From Ralstonia sp. TCR112 (GTDB taxonomy: Bacteria; Pseudomonadota; Gammaproteobacteria; Burkholderiales; Burkholderiaceae): a stretch of DNA of 64,000 nt. The notes beneath the pieces are model-generated. The model worked only from the letters and a program-made list of their open reading frames with translations, was not told the origin of the DNA and made no database searches. Both the position numbers and the translations under genes were made by a program. Numbering within the stretch: position 1 is the first letter of the stretch; each line of letters opens with the position of its first letter. The stretch covers positions 41,376 to 105,375 of the forward strand of contig NZ_VOSS01000076.1 of NCBI RefSeq assembly GCF_007997035.1, in the 5' to 3' direction. Shown piece by piece: positions 1 through 18,494 of the stretch.

Positions 1-254
1 GCGCCAACGCTGTTCGCCAATGGACCGATCTGCTCAACGATGCACAGCGCTCATATCTTCGGCAGGCCACCGAATGGCACGATCAGTTCCAACATCGACC
101 GGGGACGGCTGCGTCCCCAGCACAACTGTGGATCGCCTCTCTCGACTCCTGGCAGACGTTGGTCAACACCTTCAACGTAATCGCCGCATCGGCTACGCAA
201 GCCCAACCGCCGCTCCAAACGCACGCCGCGTCCAGGCGCGCGCAAGGCGCCTGA
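1..254 (+). CDS. Phasin-like protein, C-terminal fragment (5' end outside window)
   Basis: An open frame runs in from the left edge (first full codon at 3) and stops with TGA at 252-254, giving 83 residues. No start codon lies inside the window, so this is the tail of a longer gene. The sequence RQWTDLLNDAQ...TEWHDQFQ followed by LWIASLDSWQTLVNTFNVIA aligns by eye with the C-terminal half of the phasin-like protein at 5789-6277 (KTWAEFTNKLQ...TEWTQQMQ and LFAASSDSLKAFFDSFNLMA). Phasins coat polyhydroxyalkanoate granules. Assignment as a paralogue rests on this visible similarity. The last ~20 residues are Ala/Arg/Gln rich, as phasin tails often are. Confidence in coding is good, in function moderate. 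Confidence 0.6.
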   Translation, partial: ANAVRQWTDLLNDAQRSYLRQATEWHDQFQHRPGTAASPAQLWIASLDSWQTLVNTFNVIAASATQAQPPLQTHAASRRAQGA

Positions 255-329
255 CGGCTCGTCGTCGCGAAAGAAGATACGCACGCCAGGAAGCGATGTG
301 CCAGGCACGCGTCGACGGTGAAGAGGAGC

Positions 330-343
330 TTGATTCCTGTCAA
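330..343 (+). promoter_or_regulatory. Fnr box with class II spacing, upstream of the repeat-protein gene
   Basis: TTGAT-tcct-GTCAA matches the Fnr/Anr consensus TTGAT-N4-ATCAA at 9 of 10 positions. TATTCT at 365-370 is a good -10 hexamer exactly 21 nt downstream, which centres the box near -40.5, the position of an Fnr class II activator site. The predicted transcript starts near 377, about 68 nt before the ATG at 445. Confidence 0.65.
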
Positions 344-444
344 CGAGGCTGTCTCACAGGTGCCTATTCTTGAAATAGCCGTCGCCACGCACACGCGGTA
401 GACGGAAACCATTGGATCGACTGGATTGTTTGCAGGAGAAAAAA

Positions 445-912
445 ATGCGCGGAAAACTCATGATGGCGGTGCTCGTCATCGCGGCAGCGTCCACATCGGT
501 GTACGCACAAACGAAGACCGGCTCGGCGCAGAGCGACAACGGACAGGGGACTGACAAAATCAACCCCTACACGGAGGGTGCAAAACAAGCCAAGCCCGAT
601 CCGTATACAGAGGGATCGAGACGCGGCAAGTTCGATCCGTACACAGAGGGCGCAAAGGGCAAACGCGACCCCTATACGGAAGGCGCCAAACATGCCAAGC
701 GCGACCCGTACACAGAGGGATCAAGGCGCGGCAAGTTCGACCCTTACACGGAAGGCGCAAAGGGCAGGCGTGACGTTTATACGGACGGCGCCAAGCAGGC
801 GAAGCGCGACCCGTACACAGAAGGATCGAGGAGCGGCAAGTTCGATCCATACACAGAAGGCGCAAAGGGCAAGCGTGACGCTTATACGGACGGCGGAAAC
901 CAGACGAAGTAG
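445..912 (+). CDS. Exported PYTEG/PYTDG tandem-repeat protein
   Basis: This 155-residue protein has an N-terminal signal peptide (about residues 1-22, hydrophobic MMAVLVIAAAS, cleavage likely after VYA). The mature part is ten copies of an 11-12 residue unit with core PYTEG or PYTDG followed by basic residues (AKQAK, SRRGKF, AKGKR). The units are arranged as a 105-bp higher-order repeat (three units, 35 residues) present three times between about 562 and 876. The ATG at 445 is chosen because GGAGAA precedes it by a few bases; an upstream TTG at 412 in the same frame lacks a signal-like start. The mature protein is highly charged and Gly/Pro rich, with no visible catalytic motif. It follows an Fnr-type promoter, so low-oxygen induction is likely. 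Small exported proteins with this motif occur in Burkholderiales, but I know of no defined function. Confidence 0.75.
   Translation: MRGKLMMAVLVIAAASTSVYAQTKTGSAQSDNGQGTDKINPYTEGAKQAKPDPYTEGSRRGKFDPYTEGAKGKRDPYTEGAKHAKRDPYTEGSRRGKFDPYTEGAKGRRDVYTDGAKQAKRDPYTEGSRSGKFDPYTEGAKGKRDAYTDGGNQTK
562..876 (+). repeat. 105-bp in-frame tandem repeat, three copies
   Basis: Three consecutive 105-bp blocks each encode three PYT(E/D)G units of 12, 12 and 11 residues. A partial fourth block follows. Copies differ mostly by synonymous or conservative changes (for example SRRGKF against SRSGKF), so copy number may vary between strains by slippage or recombination. Confidence 0.75.
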
Positions 913-1098
913 CCGCGTTTGGTTTGGCCCCGACGGACGCCACGGACGCCGTCTGTGCGCGTAGAGACCGTCGTCAATGCGCACCCGCTCGACACGCTGC
1001 GTCCGCCGTTGAAGCGGACCATGTGACGCCGGGCGGGAGGCATCACCTCGGCCGGCCTGTCTCTGCACTGCAACATGTCGCCTGCCGGGCCAAACGGT

Positions 1099-1112
1099 TT
1101 GATCCGAGTCAA
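1099..1112 (+). promoter_or_regulatory. Fnr box upstream of the S30AE (hibernation factor) gene
   Basis: TTGAT-ccga-GTCAA matches the Fnr consensus at 9 of 10 positions and has the same second half-site as the box at 330-343. AACAAT at 1134-1139 lies 21 nt downstream as a plausible -10, again centring the box near -40.5. The predicted start near 1146 is about 40 nt before the ATG at 1187. Confidence 0.6.
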
Positions 1113-1186
1113 GGTGCCGGAAATCATGCGATCAACAATGAACGCATCGATGTCCACTCCCCCACCAGACCCACCGGAGCCTAACC

Positions 1187-1504
1187 ATGAGTCTTCCAGT
1201 CGATATTTCTTTCCAGGGTGTTGCGCATTCCAAGGCCGTCGAAGAGGCCGTTATCGACCGTGCAGACCGCTTGACGCGTATTCGTGGCGATCTGGAACGC
1301 TGCCGTGTCAGCCTTACCGTAGGGGCCAAGCATCAGCACAAGGGCAAGCCGTTCGACGTGCACGTCCACGTGTTTGCGCCGCATCAGACGCATGTGTCCA
1401 GCAATACGTCCCACGAAGACCCCTACGTCGCGCTTCACGAAGCGTTCACGCACGTGGAGCGCATGCTGGTGGAGGCCAACGGCAAACGCTCGCCACAGTC
1501 CTGA
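1187..1504 (+). CDS. HPF/RaiA-like ribosome-associated protein (S30AE domain)
   Basis: A 105-residue protein with the S30AE fold pattern: VDISFQGVAHSKAVEEAVIDRADRL at the N-terminus, then an alternating strand FDVHVHVFAPH and a C-terminal helix ALHEAFTHVERML. Proteins of this family bind the 30S subunit and block or dimerise idle ribosomes during stress or stationary phase. It is shorter than long-form HPF and lacks a C-terminal dimerisation domain, so it is of the short RaiA/HPF type. An Fnr-type promoter (1099-1139) suggests induction when oxygen falls, which fits a role in dormancy. Confidence 0.8.
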   Translation: MSLPVDISFQGVAHSKAVEEAVIDRADRLTRIRGDLERCRVSLTVGAKHQHKGKPFDVHVHVFAPHQTHVSSNTSHEDPYVALHEAFTHVERMLVEANGKRSPQS

Positions 1505-1531
1505 CGGATCGTTGGCGTGCGCACGCGTTAC

Positions 1532-1666: not shown

Positions 1667-1673
1667 GACGGCC

Positions 1674-2180
1674 TTATCGCGTTGCCGGACGCGCGCCAGC
1701 GCGCGGGCAGCCGCGCTTGCACAGCAGCCACTCGTCTGCGCCAGGCTCGATATGCAACCGCACGACCGCATCGACGGGCTGCGCGCCTGCGCGAACGCCC
1801 AGCGTTTGCATCGCTCCGCGATATGCGGCCGTGATCTGATAGTGCCCGCGGGGCAAGCGCATATACAGAAGCGGGCCCTCCGTGCGCACGCGCAAACGCA
1901 GCTTGCCGCGATCATCCGCAACCGACACATCCACGTCCGACAGCGCCTCGCCGGTTCTGGCCGACACCACGTTCAGCCGCACGTTGAAACGACGCGCCAT
2001 CGCGTGCAGGGTGTCGCGCTCGTCGCTTCCCACGCCGCCGGACACATAGGCGATCTCGTTCTGGAAGCGGACTTCCGGAGCCGCCGCTGCATCTGGCCCG
2101 GCTGCACCGGCGTGCGCGCTGGCAGCCAACGCCAATGCGGCGAACAGGCAGCGTTGCAAAAGACGACTTGCGTGGCTCAT
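1674..2180 (-). CDS. Exported protein with carboxypeptidase-regulatory-like fold
   Basis: A 168-residue protein with a signal peptide (hydrophobic CLFAALALAASAHAGAAG). The mature part has a beta-sandwich-like pattern: LNVVSARTGEALSDVDVSV, RLRVRTEGPLLYMRLPRGHY and QITAAYRGAMQTLGV, which resembles carboxypeptidase-regulatory/transthyretin-like domains. The ATG at 2180 is chosen over one at 2192 because GATGAGG lies just upstream. It follows the nitroreductase gene by about 14 nt in one minus-strand operon. The tail carries two cysteines (LLCKRGCP). No enzyme motif is visible; a structural or ligand-binding periplasmic role is inferred only from the fold. Confidence 0.65.
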   Translation of the reverse strand: MSHASRLLQRCLFAALALAASAHAGAAGPDAAAAPEVRFQNEIAYVSGGVGSDERDTLHAMARRFNVRLNVVSARTGEALSDVDVSVADDRGKLRLRVRTEGPLLYMRLPRGHYQITAAYRGAMQTLGVRAGAQPVDAVVRLHIEPGADEWLLCKRGCPRAGARPATR

Positions 2181-2194
2181 GTCATACCTCATCG

Positions 2195-2842
2195 CTAAGC
2201 GGCCGGGTGGCCGACTGTCTGCGCCAGCACCGGTACCTCGTCTTCGTTGAGCGACAAGGCCTCTGCCAGCAGGCGCTGGTTGAGCCAGCCGCGCACCACA
2301 CAGCCCAGCCCGACCGCGGCACAGTAGAGCGACACGTTCTGCGAGATCGCACCGGCCGCTACGCCGCAAAAGGTGTCGCGCACGGCTTCGGGCATCTGGT
2401 CCGCACGCGCATGGTTCACGACGTACACCAGATCCAGCGGGGCCCTCCCCACAAAATCCTGGTACCCCGTGAGGTTGCGCGCGTCCACGGCGTGCTTGAG
2501 GCGCAGGCGGTGCGCGCCAGGTTCGTATTCGTAGACGCCTTCAGGCAGCGCGACGTAGATGTCGATCTCGTTCAGGCCATGCGCAGAAGGCGCGGTGCGC
2601 CCGCCGGTTTCCGGCCGATTGATGCCATTCGCCGCCCATAGCAAGTCGCTCAGTTGCTGCAGCGATAGCGGCGTGGGTGCGAAATCCCGCACGCTTTTCC
2701 GCTTGGCAAGCGCCGCCGCCAACATGTTGCCGCCATCCAATAGCGGCGGCGCCAGCGCTATGGTTGCCGGCGCAGCATGGGATGTGGGCTGCGGCAGCAG
2801 ATGTTGCACAGGGTCGTAAGACAGGAGCATCGCCGCACTCAT
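2195..2842 (-). CDS. SagB/ThcOx-type nitroreductase family protein
   Basis: About 215 residues. The FMN-binding nitroreductase pattern is clear: KRKSVRDFAPTPLSLQQLSDLLWAANGINR near the N-terminus, and a C-terminal VAAGAISQNVSLYCAAVGLGCVVRGW block. Members reduce nitro compounds or quinones with NAD(P)H, or act as FMN oxidases. The start at 2842 (MSAAM) is preferred over a GTG at 2872 because GAGGTGG precedes it. The gene lies 47 nt after the alcohol dehydrogenase gene on the same strand and probably shares its Fnr-type promoter, so a redox role at low oxygen is likely. The substrate is unknown. Confidence 0.8.
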   Translation of the reverse strand: MSAAMLLSYDPVQHLLPQPTSHAAPATIALAPPLLDGGNMLAAALAKRKSVRDFAPTPLSLQQLSDLLWAANGINRPETGGRTAPSAHGLNEIDIYVALPEGVYEYEPGAHRLRLKHAVDARNLTGYQDFVGRAPLDLVYVVNHARADQMPEAVRDTFCGVAAGAISQNVSLYCAAVGLGCVVRGWLNQRLLAEALSLNEDEVPVLAQTVGHPAA

Positions 2843-2889
2843 GGCATCCACCTCACAGAGCTGAAAAGTCACCGAACATGTGTCGCCAT

Positions 2890-3927
2890 CTAGGCGGAGA
2901 TGATCACCTTGAGCGCCTGTGTTTTCGCGGCGTTGCGGAAGGTGTCATAGGCGGCGAGGATGTCATCGAGCTTGAAGCGGTGCGTAATGAGCTGCCCAGG
3001 CAGCAGCTTGCCCGCGCGCACCGTTTTGAGGAGCATCGGTGTGCTGACCGTATCGACCAGCCTCGTGGTGATGGCGATGTTCTGGCTCCACAACGTTTCC
3101 AGATGCAGGTCTGCCTTCACGCCATGCACGCCGATGTTCGCAATCACGCCACCCGGCGCAACCAGTTGCTGGCAGAGCTCGAACGTCGCGGGCACGCCCA
3201 CCGCCTCGATTGCACAATCGACGCCCACGCCATCTGTCAGCCGCTTCACGGCGGCTACGGCATCTTCACTCGAGACATCGATACACGCGGTCGCGCCCAG
3301 CCGGCCCGCCACTTCCAGCCGCGCGGTATTCGTGTCAATCATGATGATCTGCGCCGGCGAGTAGAACTGCGCCGTCAGTAGCGAAGCCAGCCCGATGGGG
3401 CCTGCACCCACGATCGCCACGCTGTTGCCGGGCTGAACACGGCCGTTCAGCACGCCACATTCGAATCCGGTGGGGAAGATGTCCGACAGCATGACGAGCG
3501 CCTCCTCGTCAACGCCAGGCGGCAGTTTGTACAGGCTCGTCTCCGCATGCGGAATTCGGACGTACTCGGCCTGCACGCCGTCGATGCGGTGGCCCAGGAT
3601 CCAGCCGCCCGTCTCGCAATGCGAGTACATGCCGCGCCGGCAGTTCGCACATTTTCCGCACGACGAAATACAGGAGATCAGCACATGGTCCCCCGGCTGC
3701 AGCGATGTCACGGCCGCGCCAACCGACTCCACCACGCCCACGCCTTCGTGGCCCAAGGTGCGCCCAGGCTCGCAGGTCGGCACGTCGCCCTTGATGATGT
3801 GCAGATCGGTACCGCAGATCGTCGTCAACGTGACACGCACGACGGCGTCGCCCGGCGACTGCACCTCCGGTTTCGGCTTGTCGGCCAGGGTGATCTTGCC
3901 GGGCCCTTCGTAGACGAGCGCTTTCAT
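2890..3927 (-). CDS. Zinc-dependent alcohol dehydrogenase family protein
   Basis: A 345-residue MDR-superfamily enzyme. The catalytic zinc site is seen as CGTDLHIIKGD and GHEGVGVV; the structural zinc cysteines are in CISSCGKCANCRRGMYSHC; the NAD(P) Rossmann motif is VGAGPIG. Length and motifs match NAD-dependent alcohol dehydrogenases. The start at 3927 (MKALVYEGPG) matches the family N-terminus; the open frame continues upstream to 4824, but that extension is antisense to the 4055 gene and has no family similarity. It is the first gene of the operon ADH, nitroreductase, exported protein, phaB remnant. A divergent Fnr-like site lies upstream. It may serve fermentative redox balance when oxygen is low. 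Confidence 0.88.
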   Translation of the reverse strand: MKALVYEGPGKITLADKPKPEVQSPGDAVVRVTLTTICGTDLHIIKGDVPTCEPGRTLGHEGVGVVESVGAAVTSLQPGDHVLISCISSCGKCANCRRGMYSHCETGGWILGHRIDGVQAEYVRIPHAETSLYKLPPGVDEEALVMLSDIFPTGFECGVLNGRVQPGNSVAIVGAGPIGLASLLTAQFYSPAQIIMIDTNTARLEVAGRLGATACIDVSSEDAVAAVKRLTDGVGVDCAIEAVGVPATFELCQQLVAPGGVIANIGVHGVKADLHLETLWSQNIAITTRLVDTVSTPMLLKTVRAGKLLPGQLITHRFKLDDILAAYDTFRNAAKTQALKVIISA

Positions 3928-3982
3928 GGGAGTCCCCAAGGAAGACGATGACTCCATGCTAGGCAACCGCCCTGCGCGCACG

Positions 3983-3996
3983 TTGATCTGCGTCAG
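3983..3996. promoter_or_regulatory. Candidate Fnr box between divergent ADH and kinase-fusion genes
   Basis: Plus strand TTGAT-ctgc-GTCAG (8 of 10). Read towards the ADH gene it is CTGAC-GCAG-ATCAA with TAGCAT at 3961-3956 as the -10; read towards the 4055 gene, GATATT at 4018-4023 could be the -10. Each lies 21 nt from the box. The hexamers are weak (4 of 6), so this is supported mainly by the repeated spacing. Confidence 0.45.
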
Positions 3997-4054
3997 GGCG
4001 CATGTCGGCATGCGCGCGATATTGATGTTCAATGTCCGGAGATGAAACCCGCGT

Positions 4055-5641
4055 ATGGCCGAACAAGCCGCCACCATTCCAAGCACGCAGGCAGCGGAAG
4101 CGTTCGTCAGCCGCATGCTTGAGGCCGCTGCGTATCCGCACCCCGCCACCGATCTGCAGATGATCGAAACGCATCTGTCGTGGGTCTTCCTGGCCGGAGC
4201 GTTTGCGTACAAGGTGCGCAAGCCAGTCAAGCTCGATTTCGTCGACTTTTCGACGCTCCGCGCGCGGCAAATCGATTGCGAGGAAGAGTGCCGTCTCAAC
4301 CGTCGCCTCGCCCCCGCGCTATACGTTGGCGTGGTGCCGATTTCGCGCGATCCGGCCACGGGCGCCATCCGCATCAACGGGCAAGGGGTGCCTGATGAAT
4401 ACGCCGTCTGCATGCGGCGGTTCGCCCAGCAAGACGTACTCTGTGCGGTGGCGCGTGACCGGCGGCTCGGCCCAGAAGAAGTCGACGCGCTGGCCGACCT
4501 GATTGCAGACTTCCACGCCTCCGCGCCGGTCGCCAGTGCGGGTTCAGAGGATGGAACGCCCTCAGCCATTCGCCACACACTCGAGGATTGCGCAGCCGGA
4601 GTCATTGCCTTAAGCACAGAACCAGCGCTGGCCCAAGCCACGGTATCGCAGCTTCGTCGACAGACCGACCGCCTCGAAGCGACATTCGCGTCACGCCGAC
4701 GCAGTCGCCACATCCGCGAATGCCATGGCGACCTGCACCTGGGCAACATCGTCTTGATCGACGGCCAGCCGACCCCGTTCGACTGTCTGGAATTCTCAGC
4801 CTCACTGCGGTGGATCGACACCATCTACGACGCCGCGTTCCTGTTCATGGATTTGCTCGCCACAGGTCTGGACGGGCTGGCGTATCGATTCATCAACCGC
4901 TATCTCGAACGATGCGGCGACTATGGCGGGTTGGCAGTTCTGCCCTTCTACGCATCGATGCGTGCACTCGTGCGCGCTCGCGTACTGCTCGAACGCGCCC
5001 GTCAGCTGGACAGCACCCCGGATCTGGGCGCCAAGCCACGCGCCGAGGCACGCCGCATGCTCGACCTGTCCCACAAGCTGCTCTGCCGAAACGACGCGTG
5101 CATTGTCCTCATGCACGGTCTTTCCGGCAGTGGAAAATCCACGCGTGCCGCACAGCTTGCCGAAGCGGAAGCGATGATCCGCGTGCGCTCCGATGTCGAA
5201 CGCCAACGCGTTCGGTATGCCGGCCCTGCCGATCGCTATCTGCCGCGTGCGCTCGAGCGTACCTATCGACGCCTGGCCGCGATCTGCAAGCTCGGTGCAG
5301 ACGCTGGTTTTCCGATGATTGCGGACGCCACGTTCCTGGCCGAGCATCAGCGCCGACGCTTTTTCTCGCTGGGCCGGCGGCTGAGCGTGGCGGTGGGCAT
5401 CGCGGACTGCGTTGCCGACGTCGACACGCTGCGTAAGCGCATCCGCCATCGCATGCGCGGCGGGCACGATGCATCCGAGGCAGATCTGGGCGTGCTGGAC
5501 GCTCAGATCACCACGCAGGAGCCACTCAACGCGCAGGAGCGGGCACATGTCATTCCTTGTGAGATATCCAACGTGGTGCCTCATCTCAGGGGCACAGGGC
5601 AGTGCATTCCTCCGGCTGGCTCAGGCAAGCAAATGCCCTGA
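4055..5641 (+). CDS. APH-like phosphotransferase fused to a P-loop kinase
   Basis: A 528-residue two-domain protein. The N-terminal ~330 residues are aminoglycoside-phosphotransferase-like, with the catalytic loop HGDLHLGNIVL near residue 225 and PFDCLEF supplying the metal-binding Asp. The C-terminal ~180 residues are an AAA_33-type kinase with a Walker A motif (GLSGSGKST near residue 354) and the later Asp of IADATFL. This architecture is known as bifunctional aminoglycoside phosphotransferase/ATP-binding protein, but its substrate is not established and it should not be taken as a resistance gene. It is divergent from ADH and may share the Fnr-like site at 3983-3996. Confidence 0.8.
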   Translation: MAEQAATIPSTQAAEAFVSRMLEAAAYPHPATDLQMIETHLSWVFLAGAFAYKVRKPVKLDFVDFSTLRARQIDCEEECRLNRRLAPALYVGVVPISRDPATGAIRINGQGVPDEYAVCMRRFAQQDVLCAVARDRRLGPEEVDALADLIADFHASAPVASAGSEDGTPSAIRHTLEDCAAGVIALSTEPALAQATVSQLRRQTDRLEATFASRRRSRHIRECHGDLHLGNIVLIDGQPTPFDCLEFSASLRWIDTIYDAAFLFMDLLATGLDGLAYRFINRYLERCGDYGGLAVLPFYASMRALVRARVLLERARQLDSTPDLGAKPRAEARRMLDLSHKLLCRNDACIVLMHGLSGSGKSTRAAQLAEAEAMIRVRSDVERQRVRYAGPADRYLPRALERTYRRLAAICKLGADAGFPMIADATFLAEHQRRRFFSLGRRLSVAVGIADCVADVDTLRKRIRHRMRGGHDASEADLGVLDAQITTQEPLNAQERAHVIPCEISNVVPHLRGTGQCIPPAGSGKQMP

Positions 5642-5684: not shown

Positions 5685-5698
5685 TTGCGCCACGTCAA
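5685..5698 (+). promoter_or_regulatory. Weak Fnr-like site upstream of the phasin gene
   Basis: TTGCG-ccac-GTCAA matches 7 of 10 consensus positions. TACGCT at 5720-5725 is 21 nt downstream, the same spacing as at the stronger sites, but matches only 3 of 6 -10 positions. Reported because the spacing recurs; weak on its own. Confidence 0.25.
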
Positions 5699-5788
5699 CG
5701 CACCCAGCCGCAGAGGGCCTACGCTGCATATGGATTCCCCATTCGGCGGCCCGCTCACCTGTCCGCCAAGACCCCACCGGAGAACGTA

Positions 5789-6277
5789 ATGCAACAACCT
5801 GCTGATATGGCCTGCAACCTGGCATGCGCCGCTCTGCGCGAAATGAGCCGCACCGCCAGCTTCATGCTCGAGGCGCAAATCGACCTGGCCCATTTCCGCC
5901 TGAAGCTCGCCGAGGCCGTGCTGGAAGATGTGCGTGAACTGGAACATGAACTGAGCGGCACGCATGACTGGACATCGCTGACCGCTGCGAACAGCATCTT
6001 CATGAAGATGCAATCGAGCCACGGGGCTAACGCGCTGAAAACGTGGGCCGAGTTCACGAATAAGCTGCAAGCCGCCTCCTTGCGTCGAATGACGGAGTGG
6101 ACCCAGCAGATGCAGCAACCCGAAGGGCAAACCTCTTCTTCCCAGCTGTTTGCCGCGTCGTCCGATTCGCTGAAGGCGTTCTTCGACAGCTTCAACCTCA
6201 TGGCCCTGCCCGACTCCGAAGCGAAGAAGAACGGACTGGCACGCACCGCAAAGGCAAGGGCTCAACAGGCCGCCTGA
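5789..6277 (+). CDS. Phasin family protein
   Basis: A 162-residue, almost wholly helical protein without membrane segments. Heptad-like amphipathic stretches (FRLKLAEAVLEDVRELEHEL; MTEWTQQMQ) and the Ala/Lys-rich tail are typical of phasins, which bind the surface of polyhydroxybutyrate granules and also act in stress protection. GGAGAACGTA precedes the ATG. The C-terminal half resembles the truncated protein at 1-254. In the Burkholderia low-oxygen locus a phasin accompanies PHB genes; here only a phaB fragment (1532-1666) remains nearby. It stands alone between the kinase-fusion gene and the hydrolase, with a weak Fnr-like site upstream. Confidence 0.75.
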   Translation: MQQPADMACNLACAALREMSRTASFMLEAQIDLAHFRLKLAEAVLEDVRELEHELSGTHDWTSLTAANSIFMKMQSSHGANALKTWAEFTNKLQAASLRRMTEWTQQMQQPEGQTSSSQLFAASSDSLKAFFDSFNLMALPDSEAKKNGLARTAKARAQQAA

Positions 6278-6363
6278 TCGACGAACCTCGGTAGTGCCCA
6301 GCCAGCACCAAACACGTAGCGCACCTGCCGGCTGGCTGCGCCTCACTTCCGGATATCCGCTCC

Positions 6364-7047: not shown

Positions 7048-7051
7048 CGCC

Positions 7052-12581: not shown

Positions 12582-12878
12582 CGGGCACCAAAAAAGGGCT
12601 GGAATGCAGACAACATAGCTTATTCCGGGGGCGGCAGATACCGGCTGTGTGATGGAGGCGCCCCCCGGGAAACCCTGTCACGGCCTGTCAGGAAACCCTG
12701 ACAAGAGCGCAGCGCACGCCGACGCGCATCTCAGCGCTGCCTGATTTCGCGCAAACGCGGCGCCTCCCATACTTCTACTCACGGACATCAGGCCTTGATG
12801 GAGGGCTGTGACCGGATACCCACCACCTCTCGGAGGATGTGTGGTTCAAACACAACAACCGCCTTCCGGAGCCGCCCC
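12582..12878. other. Divergent intergenic region between sensor kinase and fnr
   Basis: About 300 bp with no gene. It holds an inverted repeat TGTCAGG-AAAC-CCTGACA at 12686-12703 and a poor Fnr-like match CTGAT-ttcg-CGCAA at 12741-12754 that has no properly spaced -10. CATACT at 12769-12774 is a possible -10 for fnr. Promoters for both divergent units must lie here, but I cannot place them firmly. Confidence 0.4.
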
Positions 12879-13679
12879 ATGATTCCGCGCACGATAGAGT
12901 CGCCCACGCCCGTCGAAACCCGCCACCCCGCTGCCCTTCCCCAGCTCCGGCTCGTCCGTGACGCAACACAGGCCCGCCAGACAACGCCGCTGATCCCGAG
13001 CAGCCAGTGCGCCAATTGCATGATGCACTGGGCCTGCATCGCCAGCGCTGTACCGACCGCACAACGCGAACAGCTGGATCAGATGGTGCACACCTGGCGC
13101 AAGATCCCCAAGGGCGAAGCACTGTTCCGCGCGGGTGACAGCTTCCACGCGCTCTATTCCATCCGCTCGGGTTCGTTCAAGACCGTGCTTTCGCACCCCA
13201 ACGGCGCAAACCACGTCAGCGGCTTCCAGCTGCCCGGCGAAACGCTCGGCCTCGACGGCATCGCCACTGATCGCCACAGCTGCGATGCGATTGCACTGGA
13301 AGACAGCACGGTTTGCTCCATGCCGTTCCATTGCATTGAGGACCTGTGCCAGGACATCCGCCCGCTGCAGCATCGCCTTCACCAATTGATGGCCGAAGAG
13401 ATCGTGCGCGGGTCGGGGCTCATGCTGCTGCTCGCCGGGCTGAGTGCCGAAGCGCGCGTGGCGACCTTCCTGCTGAACCTCTCCTCGCGCATGCAAGACC
13501 GCGGCTACTCGGCCTCCAGCTTCACGCTGCGCATGACCCGCGAAGAAATCGGCAGCTACCTTGGCATGCAGCTCGAGACCGTCAGCCGTGCACTGTCGAG
13601 GTTCCAGCGCGAAGGCTGGATCGTTGTGAGCGGCAAGAACATCGAACTGACCGACAGGGCCGCACTGACCGAGCTTTGA
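12879..13679 (+). CDS. fnr: Fnr-type oxygen-sensing transcription regulator
   Basis: A 266-residue CRP/FNR regulator. Cys44, Cys47 and Cys53 (CANCMMHWAC) have the C-x2-C-x5-C spacing of E. coli FNR Cys20/23/29, and Cys146 in STVCSMPF lies 93 residues after Cys53, exactly as FNR Cys122 does. All four [4Fe-4S] ligands are therefore present. The recognition helix LETVSRALSRFQREG keeps the Glu-x2-Ser-Arg that reads TTGAT-N4-ATCAA. ATG at 12879 is chosen because CCGGAG precedes it and the shorter N-terminus fits the family; a frame upstream to 12795 is unlikely. Matching boxes occur at 330, 1099, 17606, 17653 and 17745, so it probably activates this block in low oxygen. It could also be called Anr. 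Confidence 0.9.
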   Translation: MIPRTIESPTPVETRHPAALPQLRLVRDATQARQTTPLIPSSQCANCMMHWACIASAVPTAQREQLDQMVHTWRKIPKGEALFRAGDSFHALYSIRSGSFKTVLSHPNGANHVSGFQLPGETLGLDGIATDRHSCDAIALEDSTVCSMPFHCIEDLCQDIRPLQHRLHQLMAEEIVRGSGLMLLLAGLSAEARVATFLLNLSSRMQDRGYSASSFTLRMTREEIGSYLGMQLETVSRALSRFQREGWIVVSGKNIELTDRAALTEL

Positions 13680-13703
13680 TCGCTCGGCTCGCCCCCATAA
13701 AAG

Positions 13704-13742
13704 AACGCCGCCCCCCTTTTTTCAGGTTGGGCGGCGTTTCTG
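13704..13742. terminator. Bidirectional rho-independent terminator between fnr and BON gene
   Basis: Perfect 10-bp stem AACGCCGCCC (13704-13713) with GGGCGGCGTT (13729-13738) and a 15-nt loop. T-rich sequence follows in both directions (TTTCTGCTT on plus; TTCTTTTAT on minus), suited to ending both convergent transcripts. Confidence 0.7.
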
Positions 13743-13791
13743 CTTCCCCCGCGTTTCCCCGCTTGGCTTCCCCGCCTTGTTTCTGCCCTCA

Positions 13792-14439
13792 CTACGGCGC
13801 GATCTGGAGATGATCGATGACTTCCGTCACGCCAGGTGCGGACCATGCCGCGCCCTTGGCCGCCCGCCGCTCGGATGCGGAACCGATGTGGCCGCTGAGC
13901 GTGACCGTCCCGCCCTGAACAGAGACCTGGATATGGTCAGCTTCCCGCGCGGCATGCCGCTTGAGCGCCGCACCGATCTGCTCGGCAACATTGGCCGGCG
14001 CCACGCGCGCTTTGATCCGCAAGCGGTTGATCAAGCCCGCCACACCGCGCAATGACCCCACCGCATGCGCTGCCTGTTCGCTCTGGTAGGGCCAGTCGAC
14101 CTCCCCGGAGAGCGTCACCCAGCCGTTTTCGACCAGCACCTCGATGCGATTGGACGGCAAGGTCACCTGCCATTCAAGCGCGGCACGGGCTGCCTGCGCG
14201 ACGTCCGCGTCCGTGTGCGCGCCCGGCAGGCGGACTTCAATTTTTTGCACAACACCGCGCACGCCGCCAACACGCTCGGCGGCATGCTCGGCAGCGAGTT
14301 TCTCCATGTAGCTGCGGACGTGGCCGGTCAGTGTCACCACGCCGTTTTCCACTTCCACGCCAATCGCTGCGGCATCCACCGCGGGCTCCCAAAGCAGTTC
14401 GTCGTTGACGTCCTGCTTGATACCCAGATCGCTTTTCAT
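13792..14439 (-). CDS. Triple BON-domain protein
   Basis: A 215-residue protein with three BON domains (about 3-70, 75-143, 148-215), each with the strand-turn VxNGWVTLSGEV or QGGTVTLSGHI and a following helix, and VRGV...I at the end. BON domains bind membranes or phospholipids and are often in the periplasm, but this protein lacks a signal peptide, as do related cytoplasmic stress BON proteins of Burkholderiales. It begins with MKSDLGIKQDVNDEL and is paralogous to the 15456-16109 gene. It is the last gene of the six-gene minus-strand operon (17524 to 13792), 30 nt after the TraR/DksA gene. Confidence 0.85.
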   Translation of the reverse strand: MKSDLGIKQDVNDELLWEPAVDAAAIGVEVENGVVTLTGHVRSYMEKLAAEHAAERVGGVRGVVQKIEVRLPGAHTDADVAQAARAALEWQVTLPSNRIEVLVENGWVTLSGEVDWPYQSEQAAHAVGSLRGVAGLINRLRIKARVAPANVAEQIGAALKRHAAREADHIQVSVQGGTVTLSGHIGSASERRAAKGAAWSAPGVTEVIDHLQIAP

Positions 14440-14469
14440 ACCTCGCTCCTGCTAGATAGCGTCGCCTTG

Positions 14470-14832
14470 CTACGCCCACCGGCGCTCGCGCGCGGTTTGG
14501 CATGGCAGACAGCGCATGGCAGTCGGCTGGGCTTGCAGGCGTAAAAACGGAATCGCCTCGCCACAATCGACGCAGATGCCGTAGCTGTGCTGCTGCATGC
14601 GCTCGCGTGCAGCGTCCAGTTGCTCCAGCTCGCTGCGATATCGGGCGAGCATGACGTCGTTCGTTTGCTCTCCTGCCTCTTCATCGGCAAGATCCGCGTT
14701 TTCGAACGGCGCCTCACGCGGCAACGGCACCGCGGATGCCCCCAGTGCGGACAACTGACGCTGCACGCGTGCGTCCTGTTCGTCGAGCAAGCTCCTCAGC
14801 CGTTCCCATTGCGCCTCGGTAAAGCGGCTCAT
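14470..14832 (-). CDS. TraR/DksA-family zinc-finger protein
   Basis: A 120-residue protein. An N-terminal coiled-coil-like helix pair (SRFTEAQWERLRSLLDEQDA) is followed by a C4 zinc finger CVDCGEAIPFLRLQAQPTAM and CLPC. This matches the TraR/DksA family, which enters the RNA polymerase secondary channel and alters stringent-type transcription. The tip acidic pair of true DksA is not obvious, so activity on polymerase is inferred only. AAGGAGAC precedes the ATG at 14832; an upstream frame to 14931 lacks support. It lies between the flavodoxin and BON genes in one operon. Confidence 0.8.
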   Translation of the reverse strand: MSRFTEAQWERLRSLLDEQDARVQRQLSALGASAVPLPREAPFENADLADEEAGEQTNDVMLARYRSELEQLDAARERMQQHSYGICVDCGEAIPFLRLQAQPTAMRCLPCQTARERRWA

Positions 14833-14879
14833 GCCAAGTCTCCTTCGATTGATCCAATGTCCGAGCGGTGTGTTGAAGG

Positions 14880-15410
14880 TCAGGCTTCCGTTGGCGAGAG
14901 CCAAGCGGGGCGTTGCCTCGACTGCTCCCACCGGCCGGCGGTCTTCACCTGATCGATGAAGCCCGCCATCTCCTCCTGCGACAACCCGCTGAGCACGTCG
15001 CGCTGGAACAGCGCCAGCACGGGCGCAGGAATGGTCGCGGTGATCCGCATGATCTCTTCGACTGCACGGAAGGCCCCGCGCGCTGCCATGACGCAGATCA
15101 CGGACAGGTGCGTGGACCCTGGCAACTGGTCGGCCAGGAAGTCCCGCATGGGCGAAGCTAGGTGGCCCATCCAGATGGGGGCAATCACGACGACATGCTC
15201 GACTTCATCGAGCGGCGGGCCTTCATAGCGGTACTTCGCGCGGGCATGGAACACGGTTTCGATGACGCAGCGCGCATCCCCGAGGAAACCGGCGCGGGGA
15301 TGCTCGTCCGTCACCTCGGCAAGCTGCCATCCGCTCTGCGCAGCCATCTGCTCGGCCACCTGACGTGCCGTACCGGTACGCGAGTAGTACACGATCAGCT
15401 TCTTTTCCAT
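14880..15410 (-). CDS. Flavodoxin family protein
   Basis: A 176-residue protein with the FMN phosphate loop YYSRTGTARQVAE at residues 8-20 and a second FMN loop near APIWMGHLASPMRDFLAD, typical of flavodoxin or protoporphyrinogen-oxidase-like (HemG-type) folds. It is probably a cytoplasmic electron carrier or oxidoreductase. ATG at 15410 (MEKKLIVYY) is chosen as GGAG lies 6 nt before it. Genes for two BON proteins flank the flavodoxin/TraR pair, all on one strand with gaps of 30-50 nt. Confidence 0.82.
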   Translation of the reverse strand: MEKKLIVYYSRTGTARQVAEQMAAQSGWQLAEVTDEHPRAGFLGDARCVIETVFHARAKYRYEGPPLDEVEHVVVIAPIWMGHLASPMRDFLADQLPGSTHLSVICVMAARGAFRAVEEIMRITATIPAPVLALFQRDVLSGLSQEEMAGFIDQVKTAGRWEQSRQRPAWLSPTEA

Positions 15411-15455
15411 CTCGGACTCCAAAGATTTCGAAAGCAGTGGAACAGCGGATTGCTT

Positions 15456-16109
15456 CTAGGAACCTACCCACATGCGGTCGACGACGGCACGCACGCCTGG
15501 CGCATCCCATGCAGCCTCGCGGGCCGCACGGCACTCGTTGAGGTTGCGCAGCGGCCCGTACAGCGTGACCGTCCCGTCCGTCACGGAAACATTCAGGCGC
15601 GAGGCGTCCACCGCAGCCAGGCGTTGCAGTGCCTTTGCGATGCGATCGCTCAGATCGGCCGGCCCGGAGGCGGCGCGCAATGTCAGCGCATTGGCGACAG
15701 ACTTCACGCCGCGCACCCTGCGCACCGTGTCCAACGCCGCACGGCGCTGGAAGTCCTGGTCGACTTCACCGCGCAGCGTCACGGCGCCCTCTTCGACGCT
15801 AATGCGGATGGCATCCGCCGGCACGGATACATTCCAGTGCAACGCGCTGCTGATTGCCTGCGCAATGTCTTCATCGGGGCGCACCATATCCGCCGGCATC
15901 CGTACATCCACATGGATGACAAGCGCGGTCACGCCGGCAACGCGCCGGATCGCCTCTTCCGCGGCATGCTTGTCGGCGAACGTGTCGACGCGGCCGGAGA
16001 GCGTGACGACGCCGTCCTTGGCCTGAACCGCAAAGCGACTGGCATCCACCGCCGGATCCCATTGCAGTTCTTCTTCGACATCGTGCTTGAGCTGGATATC
16101 GTTCTTCAT
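15456..16109 (-). CDS. Triple BON-domain protein (paralogue)
   Basis: 217 residues, three BON domains, starting MKNDIQLKHDVEEELQWDPAVDAS. Repeated features: DGVVTLSGRVD, EGAVTLRGEVD and DGTVTLYGPL, each followed by a helix and a VxGV segment. No signal peptide. The N-terminus and domain order match the protein at 13792-14439 closely, so the two arose by duplication. It lies 34 nt after the tandem universal stress gene. A role in envelope or osmotic stress is suggested by the family; the ligand is unknown. Confidence 0.85.
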   Translation of the reverse strand: MKNDIQLKHDVEEELQWDPAVDASRFAVQAKDGVVTLSGRVDTFADKHAAEEAIRRVAGVTALVIHVDVRMPADMVRPDEDIAQAISSALHWNVSVPADAIRISVEEGAVTLRGEVDQDFQRRAALDTVRRVRGVKSVANALTLRAASGPADLSDRIAKALQRLAAVDASRLNVSVTDGTVTLYGPLRNLNECRAAREAAWDAPGVRAVVDRMWVGS

Positions 16110-16143
16110 GGCGATCTCATCAGGTTCAGTCGCGGCCCAGGGC

Positions 16144-16983
16144 TCAGTGCGACATCAGCGCCGGTACGGTCATCGTCTTCAGCAGGGTGCGCGTCACGCC
16201 GCCCAGCACGAGTTCGCGCAGGCGGCTGTGCCCGTAGGCGCCCATCACGATCAGATCGGCATTGAAGTCGGCCGCCCGCGAGAGCAGCAGCTCGCCCACG
16301 GCGGTGTCGGAATCCGCGCAGTCGGCCTCTTCAACCGTCGTTTGAATGCCGCGCGCATTCAGCGCACGCGCCACCTGGCCCACGGTGGTTTCTTCGGCCC
16401 AGTGCTTTGGCTGCCTGCTGGTGATCTGCAGCACGTGCACGTTGGCACCCTTCATGATCGGCATGGCGTCGTGCACCGCACGGGCGGCTTCGCGGCCGCC
16501 GCTCCAGGCGACCAGTACACGCTTGGGCAATGCGGTGAAGTTGCCCGCATACGGCACAACCAGTACAGGGCGGCCCGACTCCAGGATCAGGGTTTCCACA
16601 AAGTCGCCGGCGATGAATTCATCCGGATCATCGTGGTTTCGTTGTCCGACCACGAGAAGATCGCTCTCTCGCGCCTCGCGCAGCACGAGCGCCACGGGGT
16701 CGCCCTCCACTGCGCGCCACTCCGTTTCCACCCCAAGGCTCTCCGTCGCCTGGCGAAAGCGCGCATGTACGGCGTCCCGAACGCTGTCGCGCCGGATACG
16801 GTCTTCTTCCAGATAGCGGGCTGCGTTCTCCATCATGTAGAACCAGCTGAGACTGGGCGCAAAGCTCGCATAGATGCCGACGAGTTTGGCGCCATGCGCC
16901 TGCGCGTACTGGGCTGCAAGGTTGAGACGGTGCATGGCGCGCTCGCTGCGGTCCAGATGCACCATCACACTGGCGTAACTCAT
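16144..16983 (-). CDS. Tandem-domain universal stress protein
   Basis: A 279-residue protein with two UspA domains. The first starts MSYASVMVHLDRSERAMHRL, and the second has VLVAWSGGREAARAVHDAMP and ends with LIVMGAYGHSRLRELVLGG, the G-x2-G-x9-G ATP loop typical of ATP-binding Usp proteins. In domain 1 the loop DLLVVGQRNHDDPDEF is altered, so only domain 2 seems competent for nucleotide. The ATG at 16983 is supported by AGGAT; the frame extending to 17382 is antisense-like read-through. It is the second gene in the operon, 40 nt after the single-domain Usp. Confidence 0.85.
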   Translation of the reverse strand: MSYASVMVHLDRSERAMHRLNLAAQYAQAHGAKLVGIYASFAPSLSWFYMMENAARYLEEDRIRRDSVRDAVHARFRQATESLGVETEWRAVEGDPVALVLREARESDLLVVGQRNHDDPDEFIAGDFVETLILESGRPVLVVPYAGNFTALPKRVLVAWSGGREAARAVHDAMPIMKGANVHVLQITSRQPKHWAEETTVGQVARALNARGIQTTVEEADCADSDTAVGELLLSRAADFNADLIVMGAYGHSRLRELVLGGVTRTLLKTMTVPALMSH

Positions 16984-17023
16984 GGTCAGATCCTGGTGTC
17001 GTGTCAGAGGGGGAACTACCCGG

Positions 17024-17524
17024 TCAGGCAATGACGGCATTGGCCAGCGGTTCGGTAGCTTCGCGCGCTGCTTCCGTGGGCACCGCGCGGACGAGCAGCA
17101 CCGGCAGCGTGCTGCGGCGTACAACGCTCTCAGCCACGCTGCCCAGGAACAAGCGCTGGAAGCCGCGACGCCCATGCGTGCCCAGCACCAGGGCCTGGGC
17201 GCCGACGTTCTGTGCCGCCTGTTCGATGGCGGTGCCGATGTCGAAGGTTCCGATGGGGTCGTCCACCACCACGCTGTGGACATGTACACCGGCCTTTTCG
17301 GCCTTGTCCCGCGCGTCGGCAACGATTTGCTTGCCTTGTTTGACCAGTGCCTCGGTAAAGGCGCCGACATCGATATAGCCAACGTCGTACATCAGATACG
17401 AGTTGTCGATCACGTGCGCGATGACCAGCTCAGAGCCGAGCTTTTTTGCCAGCTGGATGGCCTCGTCCAGCGCGCGCTCCGCCGTAGGACTGCCATCCAC
17501 GGCTACCAGAATCCTGTCGTACAT
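17024..17524 (-). CDS. Universal stress protein (UspA family), operon leader
   Basis: A 166-residue single UspA domain: MYDRILVAVDGSPTAERALDEA at the start and ALVLGTHGRRGFQRLFLGSVAE, carrying the G-x2-G-x9-G(S/T) ATP-binding loop, near the end. Usp proteins aid survival in starvation and anoxia. GGAGG is placed 7 nt before the ATG at 17524. This is the first gene of a six-gene minus-strand operon (Usp, tandem Usp, BON, flavodoxin, TraR/DksA, BON). Its upstream region has an Fnr-like box at 17606-17619. Confidence 0.88.
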   Translation of the reverse strand: MYDRILVAVDGSPTAERALDEAIQLAKKLGSELVIAHVIDNSYLMYDVGYIDVGAFTEALVKQGKQIVADARDKAEKAGVHVHSVVVDDPIGTFDIGTAIEQAAQNVGAQALVLGTHGRRGFQRLFLGSVAESVVRRSTLPVLLVRAVPTEAAREATEPLANAVIA

Positions 17525-17605
17525 GATGTGCCTCCATCTCGAATCCGTCGTCCGCCCCACACGGGGTTGCTGGATTCCATGTTGGACCACCATGCGGATC
17601 AGCCC

Positions 17606-17619
17606 TTGATTTACATCAG
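17606..17619 (-). promoter_or_regulatory. Fnr box for the minus-strand Usp/BON operon
   Basis: On the plus strand TTGAT-ttac-ATCAG (9 of 10 matches); on the minus strand CTGAT-GTAA-ATCAA. CAACAT at 17584-17579 lies 21 nt further on as the -10 for the minus-strand operon (3 of 6). The predicted start near 17572 leaves a 47-nt leader before the ATG at 17524. Confidence 0.5.
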
Positions 17620-17652
17620 CGTTTGGCTTGCCGGCGCCTCAGGCAATGCCAA

Positions 17653-17666
17653 TTGATCTGCCTCAA
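17653..17666. promoter_or_regulatory. Second Fnr-like box in the divergent Usp/CBS region
   Basis: TTGAT-ctgc-CTCAA matches 9 of 10 positions. On the plus strand TAGACT at 17688-17693 is a possible -10 at the same 21-nt spacing. It lies between the two sites assigned to each divergent transcript and could serve the plus-strand CBS gene from a further promoter or modulate both. Confidence 0.45.
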
Positions 17667-17744
17667 GGGCCTGCGCGCCGCGCTCGATAGACTCGTGCGC
17701 TATCCGCTGCCTCTCGGGTGCAGTTCTGGAAAGCTCACGGCACC

Positions 17745-17758
17745 TTGTGCGGGATCAA
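17745..17758 (+). promoter_or_regulatory. Fnr box with TATAGT -10 for the CBS gene
   Basis: TTGTG-cggg-ATCAA (8 of 10) followed after 21 nt by TATAGT at 17780-17785, a strong -10 hexamer. The centre is near -40.5 of a start at about 17792, 21 nt before the ATG at 17813. Best promoter candidate for the CBS/DUF2892 pair. Confidence 0.55.
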
Positions 17759-17812
17759 CTTCTGACACCGGCCCGTTCTTATAGTGAAAACGTACGCGCA
17801 TCGGAGTTCAGC

Positions 17813-18271
17813 ATGAGGGTCAACGAGATCTGTTCCCACCGCATCGTCCACGTCCAGGCGACGGCGACGCTGCAGCAAGCCGCCCGGCTGATGCGCGACG
17901 AAAGCGCCCGGGCGCTGCTTGTCACGGAACAAGCCGTTGGAGGTTCACGGGTGGTCGGCATCGTGACAGACCGCGACATGGTGGTGCACGGCATTGCCAG
18001 CCAAAGCGACTGCACCCACACCGCCGTCTCCGAAGTCATGACGCGCGGCCTCCTGACCATCCACGATGACGCCGTGATCAGTGAAGCCCTGCGCTCGATG
18101 CTGAGCCACGGCCTGCACCGTCTAGGCGTGGTCGATCGTCAGCAACGGCTGGTGGGCATGCTCAGCCTGGACGACACCATCCGCGCGATCGGCGGCGAAT
18201 GGACGTTGCTCGCCGGCATTCTCGGTCGCGACAACGCGACGCGCCCCGCCACCATGCGCCGTCCGACTTGA
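17813..18271 (+). CDS. CBS-domain pair protein
   Basis: A 152-residue protein made almost only of two CBS motifs: VNEICSHRIVHVQATATLQQA...VVGIVTDRDMV and VSEVMTRGLLTIHDDAVISEA...LVGMLSLDDTI. CBS pairs bind adenosine nucleotides and usually regulate an attached or partner protein; no partner domain is fused here, as in stand-alone CBS stress proteins. CGGAG precedes the ATG at 17813. The Fnr-type site at 17745-17785 lies directly upstream. The DUF2892 gene follows after 40 nt and is probably co-transcribed. Confidence 0.85.
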   Translation: MRVNEICSHRIVHVQATATLQQAARLMRDESARALLVTEQAVGGSRVVGIVTDRDMVVHGIASQSDCTHTAVSEVMTRGLLTIHDDAVISEALRSMLSHGLHRLGVVDRQQRLVGMLSLDDTIRAIGGEWTLLAGILGRDNATRPATMRRPT

Positions 18272-18311
18272 TTCTCTAAGGCTTCACTCACTGTTATCCA
18301 GGAGCACTGCC

Positions 18312-18494
18312 ATGTTCACCAATGTTGGAACCGCGGACCGCGCCGTCCGCATCTTGATCGGCGTCGCCATGATCCTGCTGGCGTTCTTTGGCAAGGTGCC
18401 CGCGTGGGTCGGCTGGGTGGGTCTGATCCCCCTGGTGACCGGCCTCGTCCGCATGTGCCCGCTCTACTGGGTGCTGGGCATCGGACGAGATTGA
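18312..18494 (+). CDS. DUF2892 (YgaP-like) small membrane protein
   Basis: A 60-residue inner-membrane protein: MFTNVGTADRAVRILIGVAM, then two hydrophobic helices (about 13-27 and 31-46), and the conserved CPLYWVLGI end. This is the DUF2892/YgaP transmembrane module without a rhodanese domain. The family's role is unclear, and the retained Cys of CPLY may be redox active. AGGAG precedes the ATG. Its TGA directly abuts the stop of the convergent MgtC/DUF4010 gene. Confidence 0.82.
   Translation: MFTNVGTADRAVRILIGVAMILLAFFGKVPAWVGWVGLIPLVTGLVRMCPLYWVLGIGRD

What the first reader, a model, noticed from the sequence alone, without database searches (positions are those of the whole stretch)
1..18494. 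Low-oxygen persistence block under one Fnr-type switch
An Fnr regulator with all four iron-sulphur cysteines lies in the middle of genes for phasins, ribosome hibernation, universal stress proteins, BON, CBS, flavodoxin, TraR/DksA, MgtA, nitroreductase and alcohol dehydrogenase. Boxes resembling TTGAT-N4-ATCAA occur at 330, 1099, 3983, 17606, 17653 and 17745, with a weak one at 5685. In each case a -10-like word follows after exactly 21 nt, near -40.5, the class II site. For the three best sites (330, 1099, 17745) the hexamers are good; for the weaker ones I picked the hexamer by position, so they carry less weight. The set is reminiscent of the lxa locus of Burkholderia cenocepacia, but with its own gene order.
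Basis: partly seen in the sequence, partly recalled or inferred. Interest (0 to 1): 0.72.

Follow-up and report, generated by a model that had tools for sequence, protein, structure and literature searches.

The report
Two-tier oxygen switch for dormancy genes
A Ralstonia bacterium carries a block of nearly 60 kilobases of survival genes in which at least nine predicted promoters bear the same precisely spaced box, predicted to bind an oxygen-sensing Fnr protein, and the block's own Fnr gene carries a nearly private DNA signature through which a neighbouring, predicted oxygen-sensing kinase pair likely switches it on.

Summary
The boxes are real and the 21-nt rule holds: in all nine promoters footprinted across Ralstonia, a conserved -10 hexamer starts exactly 21 nt after the Fnr-type box. 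Box 17606 faces left, not right, and box 20883 was missed. The block is the right third (about 21 of 58 kb) of an lxa-type low-oxygen persistence locus; the rest lies left of the window. "One Fnr-type switch" is not supported. The genome has three Fnr-type proteins with four cysteines and the same recognition motif. Upstream of the local fnr no box scored within two mismatches; instead there is an 18-bp palindrome, TGTCAGG-N4-CCTGACA, found upstream of this Fnr in 16 of 16 Ralstonia genomes. The window's 5.44-Mb genome has two perfect copies, at Fnr and at Hsp20. It tracks the recognition helix of a linked NarL-type response regulator whose partner kinase has a FixL-like PAS domain. Best reading (binding and sign inferred): kinase and regulator raise Fnr, and Fnr then drives hibernation factor, stress proteins, CBS, phasin and others through class II boxes. 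lxa with an embedded FNR is known in Burkholderia; I found no report of the palindrome. New variant of a known kind.

The parts
330..343 (+). Fnr box TTGATTCCTGTCAA; -10 TATTCT at 365-370, 21 nt on; gene 445-912
   Evidence: same -10 at 21 nt in 3 of 3 further genomes fetched for it; a box at -129 in G008 too
445..912 (+). PYTEG-repeat protein with signal-like start, no Pfam hit
1099..1112 (+). Fnr box; -10 AACAAT at 1134-1139; upstream of HPF
   Evidence: 8 of 8 genomes
1187..1504 (+). ribosome hibernation factor (S30AE)
   Evidence: E 2e-11
1674..3927 (-). likely leftward unit: ADH (2890-3927), nitroreductase (2195-2842), small protein (1674-2180)
   Evidence: gaps 47 and 14 nt
3983..3996 (.). 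one Fnr box between two divergent genes: rightward -10 GATATT 4018-4023 (kinase), leftward -10 TAGCAT 3956-3961 (ADH), both at 21 nt
   Evidence: 10 of 10 sequences (9 genomes) and 7 of 7
4055..5641 (+). APH/AAA_33 two-domain kinase
5685..5698 (+). weak Fnr box; -10 TACGCT 5720-5725; stronger form in relatives
   Evidence: score <=2 at -104 to -106 in 7 of 8 relatives' sequences, not in the window
5789..7702 (+). phasin-like protein (by eye), alpha/beta hydrolase-like (below Pfam cut-off), phosphoribosyltransferase
7713..10343 (-). MgtA-type Mg2+ P-type ATPase; box upstream in 5 of 7 relatives' sequences, not in the window
10592..11239 (-). NarL-type response regulator, recognition helix STYKMR
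11236..12581 (-). HisKA_3 sensor kinase with FixL-like PAS; reading frame broken in this genome (N-terminal piece 11559-12581)
12686..12703 (.). palindrome TGTCAGG-AAAC-CCTGACA between kinase and Fnr genes
   Evidence: 9 of 9; 2 perfect copies in the genome; 16 of 16 genus genomes
12879..13679 (+). Fnr-type regulator, four Cys, ETVSR recognition motif
13792..17524 (-). likely leftward six-gene unit USP (17024-17524), USP (16144-16983), BON, flavodoxin, DksA/TraR, BON
   Evidence: order kept in 8 of 8 named relatives
17606..17619 (-). Fnr box for the leftward USP unit; -10 CAACAT 17579-17584
   Evidence: 9 of 9
17653..17666 (+). Fnr box, rightward; -10 TAGACT 17688-17693; first CBS promoter
   Evidence: 9 of 9
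17745..17758 (+). Fnr box, rightward; -10 TATAGT 17780-17785; second CBS promoter
   Evidence: 9 of 9
17813..18494 (+). CBS-pair protein and YgaP-like membrane protein
19786..19799 (-). weak (3-mismatch) conserved box in the MgtC-like/ADH divergent region; -10 AATACT 19759-19764 for the leftward MgtC-like gene
   Evidence: 9 of 9; picked because it is conserved
20883..20896 (+).
   Evidence: 9 of 9

Best explanation
This block is the right third of a Ralstonia lxa-type persistence locus in which at least nine predicted promoters carry an Fnr-type box exactly 21 nt before a conserved -10 element, and it likely works as a two-tier oxygen cascade: a predicted FixL-like kinase and its NarL-type response regulator would act at a palindrome to raise Fnr, and Fnr, predicted to be active when oxygen falls, would then switch on the persistence genes as a class II activator. 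Shown here: the boxes, the spacing, their conservation, the palindrome and its positions, the gene linkage. Inferred: that Fnr-type proteins bind the boxes (any of three could), that the response regulator binds the palindrome, that it activates rather than represses, and that the kinase senses oxygen. Hsp20, which carries both elements, would be a two-input promoter.
For: Footprint over nine promoters, 7-10 sequences each: the TTGA and TCAA positions are invariant in 9 of 9 promoters, the six -10 positions at 21 nt in 0.89-1.00, the 21-nt spacer in 0.35 on average (my mean of the listed values). Spacing test. 5 of 16 genome-wide TTGATNNNNRTCAA sites fall within 46 kb of the locus, binomial P 1.8e-7, region chosen afterwards. 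Palindrome: 2 perfect copies in 5.44 Mb, both in the locus. In 16 genus genomes, 30 perfect copies: 16 upstream of the local Fnr, 8 upstream of Hsp20, 6 upstream of a second kinase-like gene. In G160, of another genus, one perfect copy sits between Fnr and Hsp20. Co-variation: helix KMR in six Ralstonia rows and in 8 genomes of two other genera; palindrome upstream of Fnr perfect in 4 of those 8, one mismatch in 1, two mismatches in 1, not found in 2; KTR or KAR in the 14 other loci read, none with <=1 mismatch in the stretch held. Kinase PAS: 13 of 16 PDB sequences matched are FixL or Dos-type haem PAS, best E 8.9e-15; the His aligned with FixL's haem ligand (numbering recalled) is kept in 21 of 21 rows.
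Against: No expression or binding data. Two other Fnr-type proteins could own the boxes. The eight named relatives are close (Fnr 78-94%). Co-variation is confounded by descent: KMR loci are the nearest relatives; in G106 and G155 (KMR) no copy was found (no full local Fnr hit in those stretches); G118 (KTR) has a perfect copy, but at an unrelated place. A 3-mismatch box-like word, CTGATTTCGCGCAA (12741), conserved nearly throughout upstream of fnr, leaves Fnr autoregulation possible, though no -10 lies 21 nt from it in the window (by eye). The palindrome's centre lies about 85-90 bp from the start sites I infer by eye, far for a NarL-type activator (recalled); repression is possible. The kinase frame is broken in this very genome (292-contig draft, may be an assembly error). 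The PAS His also occurs in non-haem PAS domains (recalled). The lxa-ordered locus L038 (KTR) lacks the palindrome.
Confidence: 0.6

Rival explanations
1. The boxes belong to the genome's general ANR/Fnr regulon, run mainly by the paralogue near the cbb3 genes (C216), and the local Fnr is a minor or redundant partner.
For: C216 and C282 proteins have four Cys and ETVSR. 11 of 16 strong boxes lie outside the block. In Herbaspirillum, Fnr3 activates a phasin and adhA, and two usp genes are co-activated by Fnr1 and Fnr3 (PMC5934665, passages). In B. cenocepacia H111, a strain without lxa (PMC3759415, passages), loss of both anr genes abolishes anoxic survival (PMC9104464, passages).
Against: An orthologue of the local Fnr (75-100%) is found in all 16 genus genomes, and strong boxes cluster in the block.
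Confidence: 0.3
2. The palindrome is bound by something other than the linked response regulator, for example an unlinked regulator or the second response regulator.
For: No binding data; 4 genus genomes have a second, 55-56% identical regulator near the second kinase-like gene.
Against: It lies between the kinase-RR and Fnr genes in the nine aligned genomes, upstream of Fnr in 16 of 16, and tracks the KMR helix.
Confidence: 0.3
3. The palindrome works as an RNA hairpin (terminator or leader structure).
For: 7-bp stem with a 4-nt loop.
Against: No T-run follows it in the sequences seen; the four one-mismatch copies at Hsp20 change one arm only. Identical arms in perfect copies say nothing, since the search demanded them.
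Confidence: 0.05
4. The block is a loose stress island with chance boxes.
For: 14-bp degenerate motif.
Against: Conservation and spacing tests.
Confidence: 0.02

Closest known systems
lxa locus of Burkholderia cenocepacia/contaminans (BCAM0275A-BCAM0323)
   Same: USPs, Hsp20, ADH, PHA polymerase, phosphate acetyl/butyryl transferase, acetate kinase, OM lipoprotein/HlyD/ABC genes, FtsH-like peptidase, 6-phosphofructokinase, cation ATPase, an FNR (BCAM0287) next to a response regulator (BCAM0288) (PMC4981469 Table 2); [quoted passage not shown] L038 shows the same order.
   Different: Own gene order; HPF, APH/AAA kinase, hydrolase/PRTase, MgtA and PYTEG genes as box-linked units; KMR-type regulator with palindrome, which L038 lacks.
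FixLJ-FixK2 oxygen cascade of rhizobia (recalled)
   Same: FixL-like PAS kinase, FixJ/NarL-type regulator, then a Crp/Fnr-family activator.
   Different: Kinase is HisKA_3; the Fnr keeps its Fe-S cysteines; the output is persistence genes.
Herbaspirillum seropedicae Fnr1/Fnr3 network (PMC5934665, passages)
   Same: Several Fnr paralogues; adhA, phasin and usp promoters are targets.
   Different: No response-regulator palindrome is mentioned in the passages I saw.
Mycobacterial DosRST dormancy regulon
   Same: USPs, alpha-crystallin and phosphofructokinase, as noted for lxa in PMC6127331 (passages); NarL-type regulator; other shared gene types recalled.
   Different: Regulator acts directly on the dormancy genes, no Fnr tier; sensors use GAF haem (recalled).

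Membership tests
lxa locus | clustered USPs, Hsp20, PHA, Pta/AckA and ADH genes around an FNR and a response regulator | tested here: met
   genes left of the window named by eye from translations
lxa locus | FNR-box motifs at its promoters | tested here: met
lxa locus | induction at low oxygen and need for anoxic survival | not testable with these tools
   needs RNA-seq and survival assays
FNR (Fe-S) | four cluster cysteines, cNMP-binding fold, HTH_Crp, E-x-x-S-R | tested here: met
FNR (Fe-S) | NCBIfam Fnr subfamily cut-off (NF008365, 228 bits) | tested here: not met
   209.3 bits, though the best family: a divergent FNR
FNR (Fe-S) | oxygen-labile [4Fe-4S] cluster | not testable with these tools
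   -
class II FNR promoter | box at fixed spacing from a -10, centre near -41 | tested here: met
   spacing; start sites not mapped
FixLJ-FixK cascade | haem-PAS kinase | tested here: inconclusive
   PAS closest to FixL/Dos PAS, His kept; haem not shown
FixLJ-FixK cascade | FixJ/NarL-type regulator acting at the promoter of the Crp/Fnr gene | tested here: inconclusive
   regulator and palindrome present; binding not shown
FixLJ-FixK cascade | FixK-type output without Fe-S cysteines (recalled) | tested here: not met
   local Fnr has all four Cys
DosRST regulon | DosR box at regulon promoters | not tested
   not searched

The most novel reading that the evidence does not exclude
A nearly private oxygen cascade for bacterial dormancy: a FixL-like haem kinase and a NarL-type regulator with one to three sites per genome (Fnr, Hsp20, a second kinase) switch on an iron-sulphur Fnr, which then fires a whole dormancy locus through strictly 21-nt-spaced promoters, with Hsp20 as a built-in AND gate reading both sensors.
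Probability: 0.45. Interest if true: 0.75.

Novelty: new variant of a known kind. Interest (0 to 1): 0.6.

Why it matters
The lxa locus is tied to persistence of the obligate aerobe B. cenocepacia without oxygen, while the roles of its several FNR regulators are called poorly defined (PMC4505428, passages). A cascade with a tiny, sequence-defined regulon (one to three perfect palindromes per Ralstonia genome) makes the switching directly testable: one protein, two promoters. It would join FixLJ-type and Fnr-type sensing in one dormancy switch, parallel to DosR in mycobacteria.

Tried and rejected
Rejected: a single-switch model (three Fnr-type proteins, palindrome); rightward reading of box 17606; chance boxes; RNA hairpin as the main role of the palindrome. 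Left open: Fnr autoregulation (no box scoring <=2 within 350 nt in 9 of 9, but a conserved 3-mismatch word at 12741); class I use of 19786 for the second ADH (spacing about -60.5, by eye); the MgtA box (5 of 7 relatives' sequences, absent in the window). Plasmid search: 29 records, best place 60-80% identical in 28 and 80-90% in 1, none covering 80% of the query. Literature: judged from titles and starts of abstracts, showed nothing on this palindrome or on a response regulator feeding lxa. One search listed two papers that hold both half-site strings (PMC5562331 on SsrB, PMC10294631 on CsrA); I did not open them. Sass 2013, the primary lxa paper, is not held; its motif is known to me only through PMC4505428 and PMC4981469. 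Dropped: L027 (Bradyrhizobium); L051, L055-L068 and L127 were fetched but enter no count. Seven one-mismatch palindromes were not followed; five of the nine perfect copies outside the genus have none of my 32 query genes near them. Of the RR matches in 74 of 150 genomes I read the helix only in the loci held. Duplicates: the kinase set has 10 sequences from 9 genomes, the PYTEG set 3 from 2 (L025/L033 and L026/L034 overlap). Recalled, from no call: E. coli FNR position numbers and the effect of position 28, FixL residue numbers, NreC-type sites, FixK and DosS/T features, DosR gene parallels beyond PMC6127331.
Full report
WHAT IS THERE. The window is bases 41,376-105,375 of a 105-kb contig of a 5.44-Mb draft genome. 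Eight named relatives carrying the same Fnr (78-94% identical) are seven Ralstonia records and one 'Burkholderiaceae bacterium'. The stretch left of the window continues the block: translations read by eye look like PhaC, OM lipoprotein/HlyD/ABC exporter, phasin, Pta, AckA, a copper-type P-ATPase, Hsp20, FtsH, PfkB and a phasin. This matches the published lxa list (PMC4981469, section 5, part 1 of 2, Table 2). A locus from another genus, L038, shows the lxa order ADH-FNR-RR-kinase-USPs-AckA-USP-PhaC. So the block is an lxa-type locus of about 58 kb (C267:4.6-62.8 kb), of which the window holds the right third.

BOXES AND SPACING. Of 16 distinct TTGATNNNNRTCAA sites in the genome (pattern read backwards: 1), five lie on this contig within 46 kb (binomial P 1.8e-7, region chosen afterwards). 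In the window and the eight named relatives, the 350-nt upstream regions of 21 genes gave 118 hits scoring <=2 against a mean of 7.05 (maximum 14) in 20 mononucleotide shuffles; orthologous hits are not independent and a few sequences are duplicates of one genome. Hits fall at HPF (8 of 8 genomes), the kinase (10 of 10 sequences, 9 genomes), the divergent ADH (7 of 7), USP/CBS (three boxes, 9 of 9), USP3 (9 of 9) and PYTEG (3 of 3 sequences, 2 genomes; and 3 of 3 further genomes). The phasin box scores <=2 at its place in 7 of 8 relatives' sequences, not in the window. MgtA has one in 5 of 7 relatives' sequences, not in the window. Upstream of Fnr, RR, kinase, nitroreductase, hydrolase, BON1, DksA, flavodoxin, USP2, the MgtC-like gene and ADH2 no box scored <=2 in any sequence; BON2 had one in 1 of 9. 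Weaker words exist: the conserved 3-mismatch site 19786 (counted as a promoter because a -10 follows at 21 nt) and CTGATTTCGCGCAA at 12741 upstream of fnr (no -10 at 21 nt in the window, by eye).

Averaged over nine promoters, the TTGA and TCAA positions are invariant in all nine, the six -10 positions at exactly 21 nt in 0.89-1.00, the spacer in 0.35 (the spacer mean is mine). The mean TATAAT match over ten promoters is 3.8 at 21 nt and at most 2.3 at any other spacing from 12 to 32; 0 of 2000 shuffles reach it. Three of the ten were picked or oriented after looking; without them the mean is 3.9. Box 3983 lies between two divergent genes and has a -10 at 21 nt on each side. The FtsH box outside the window is found in 11 of 11 loci scanned for it.

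WHO BINDS. The genome has three Fnr-type proteins with C-x2-C-x5-C and the fourth Cys, all with ETVSR. At the positions next to the cluster (22, 24, 28 in E. coli FNR; numbering recalled) the local one has N, M, A. Changes at 22 and 24 give aerobic FNR activity in E. coli, and P. putida has paralogues whose clusters react more slowly (PMC4505428, passages); position 28 is recalled. So the local Fnr may stay active at higher oxygen. This is inference.

THE SECOND ELEMENT. Between kinase and Fnr genes lies TGTCAGG-N4-CCTGACA, in 9 of 9. The genome has two perfect copies, the other about 167 nt upstream of Hsp20; none has one mismatch and six have two, against 2 for the reversed pattern. In 16 of 16 genus genomes a perfect copy precedes the local Fnr. 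All 30 perfect copies in these genomes lie upstream of Fnr (16), Hsp20 (8) or a second kinase-like gene (6; 42-47% similar to the kinase over about 120 residues, otherwise by eye). Of 11 one-mismatch copies, four lie at Hsp20 and seven were not followed. Reversed-pattern control at <=1 mismatch: 1 place in 1 of 16 genomes. In 150 family genomes, 23 have a perfect copy: the 14 Ralstonia and 9 of 136 others; four of these nine lie upstream of a local Fnr (51-55% identical), five lie elsewhere. In G160 a perfect copy lies between Fnr and Hsp20. Hsp20 promoters (12 of 12 aligned) also carry TTGATCTNCCGCAA, a 2-mismatch box, with CACGAT (3 of 6) 21 nt on, read by eye from the alignment.

LINK TO THE RESPONSE REGULATOR. 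The linked regulator has recognition helix STYKMR in the six Ralstonia rows aligned and in eight genomes of two other genera. Among these eight the palindrome upstream of Fnr is perfect in four, has one mismatch in one (G138, which also has a symmetrically changed dyad CGTCAGG-N4-CCTGACG upstream of its kinase), two mismatches in one (G077), and was not found in two (G106, G155; no full local Fnr hit in those stretches). The 14 KTR or KAR loci read have no copy with <=1 mismatch in the DNA held; eight of them had only 1.5 kb of flank, and G118 among them has a perfect copy at an unrelated place. Two KAR loci have related dyads upstream of Fnr (TCTAGGG-AATT-CCCTACA in L042, TGTAGGG-ATTT-CCTGACA in L035). 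Descent confounds this co-variation.

THE SENSOR. The kinase N-terminal piece has a PAS domain and HisKA_3 after a membrane-like segment (by eye). Of 16 PDB sequences matched, 13 are FixL or Dos-type haem PAS. The residue aligned with FixL's haem-ligating His (recalled numbering) is His in 21 of 21 rows. In the window's genome the kinase frame is broken; it is open in the 12 other Ralstonia loci looked at. Either the draft has an error or this strain has lost the first tier.

MECHANISM. Most likely: kinase and regulator respond to low oxygen, act at the palindrome to raise Fnr (and Hsp20), and Fnr activates class II promoters for ribosome hibernation, USPs, CBS, phasin, ADH and others. The first tier's signal, binder and sign are inferred. 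Compared with lxa it is a member by content; compared with FixLJ-FixK it works alike but is not a member (Fe-S Fnr output, HisKA_3 kinase).

NOVELTY. lxa with an embedded FNR and an FNR-box-like motif is in print (PMC4505428, passages; PMC4981469, passages and section 5 part 1). A DosR parallel is in print (PMC6127331, passages). Searches showed no paper, by title and abstract start, on the palindrome or on a regulator-to-Fnr cascade in lxa; most subscription journals are not covered and Sass 2013 is not held.

Noticed in passing
window 11236-12581 -: Sensor-kinase reading frame is broken in this genome; open in 12 of 12 other Ralstonia loci examined. Described only.
   Followed up: partly
L103, L104, L105, L108, L113, L114: Six genus genomes carry a second kinase-like gene (by similarity and by eye, membrane-type sensor) with the same palindrome just upstream; the window's genome has no such third site.
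   Followed up: partly
L042 9338-9355; L035 9480-9497: Related dyads TAGGG-N4-CCCTA and TAGGG-N4-CCTGA upstream of Fnr in loci with KAR-type regulators; the site may evolve with the recognition helix.
   Followed up: partly
L009 (G000:C229): A 5.6-kb contig holds a second copper-type P-ATPase gene, similar by eye to the one in the block, with two Fnr boxes.
   Followed up: no
window 445-912: PYTEG-repeat secreted-looking protein; repeat number varies between genomes, no Pfam family, yet one of the best Fnr boxes.
   Followed up: partly
window 40886-56569: Genes that read by eye like a type VI secretion cluster (VgrG-, PAAR-, TssM-like); not domain-tested.
   Followed up: no
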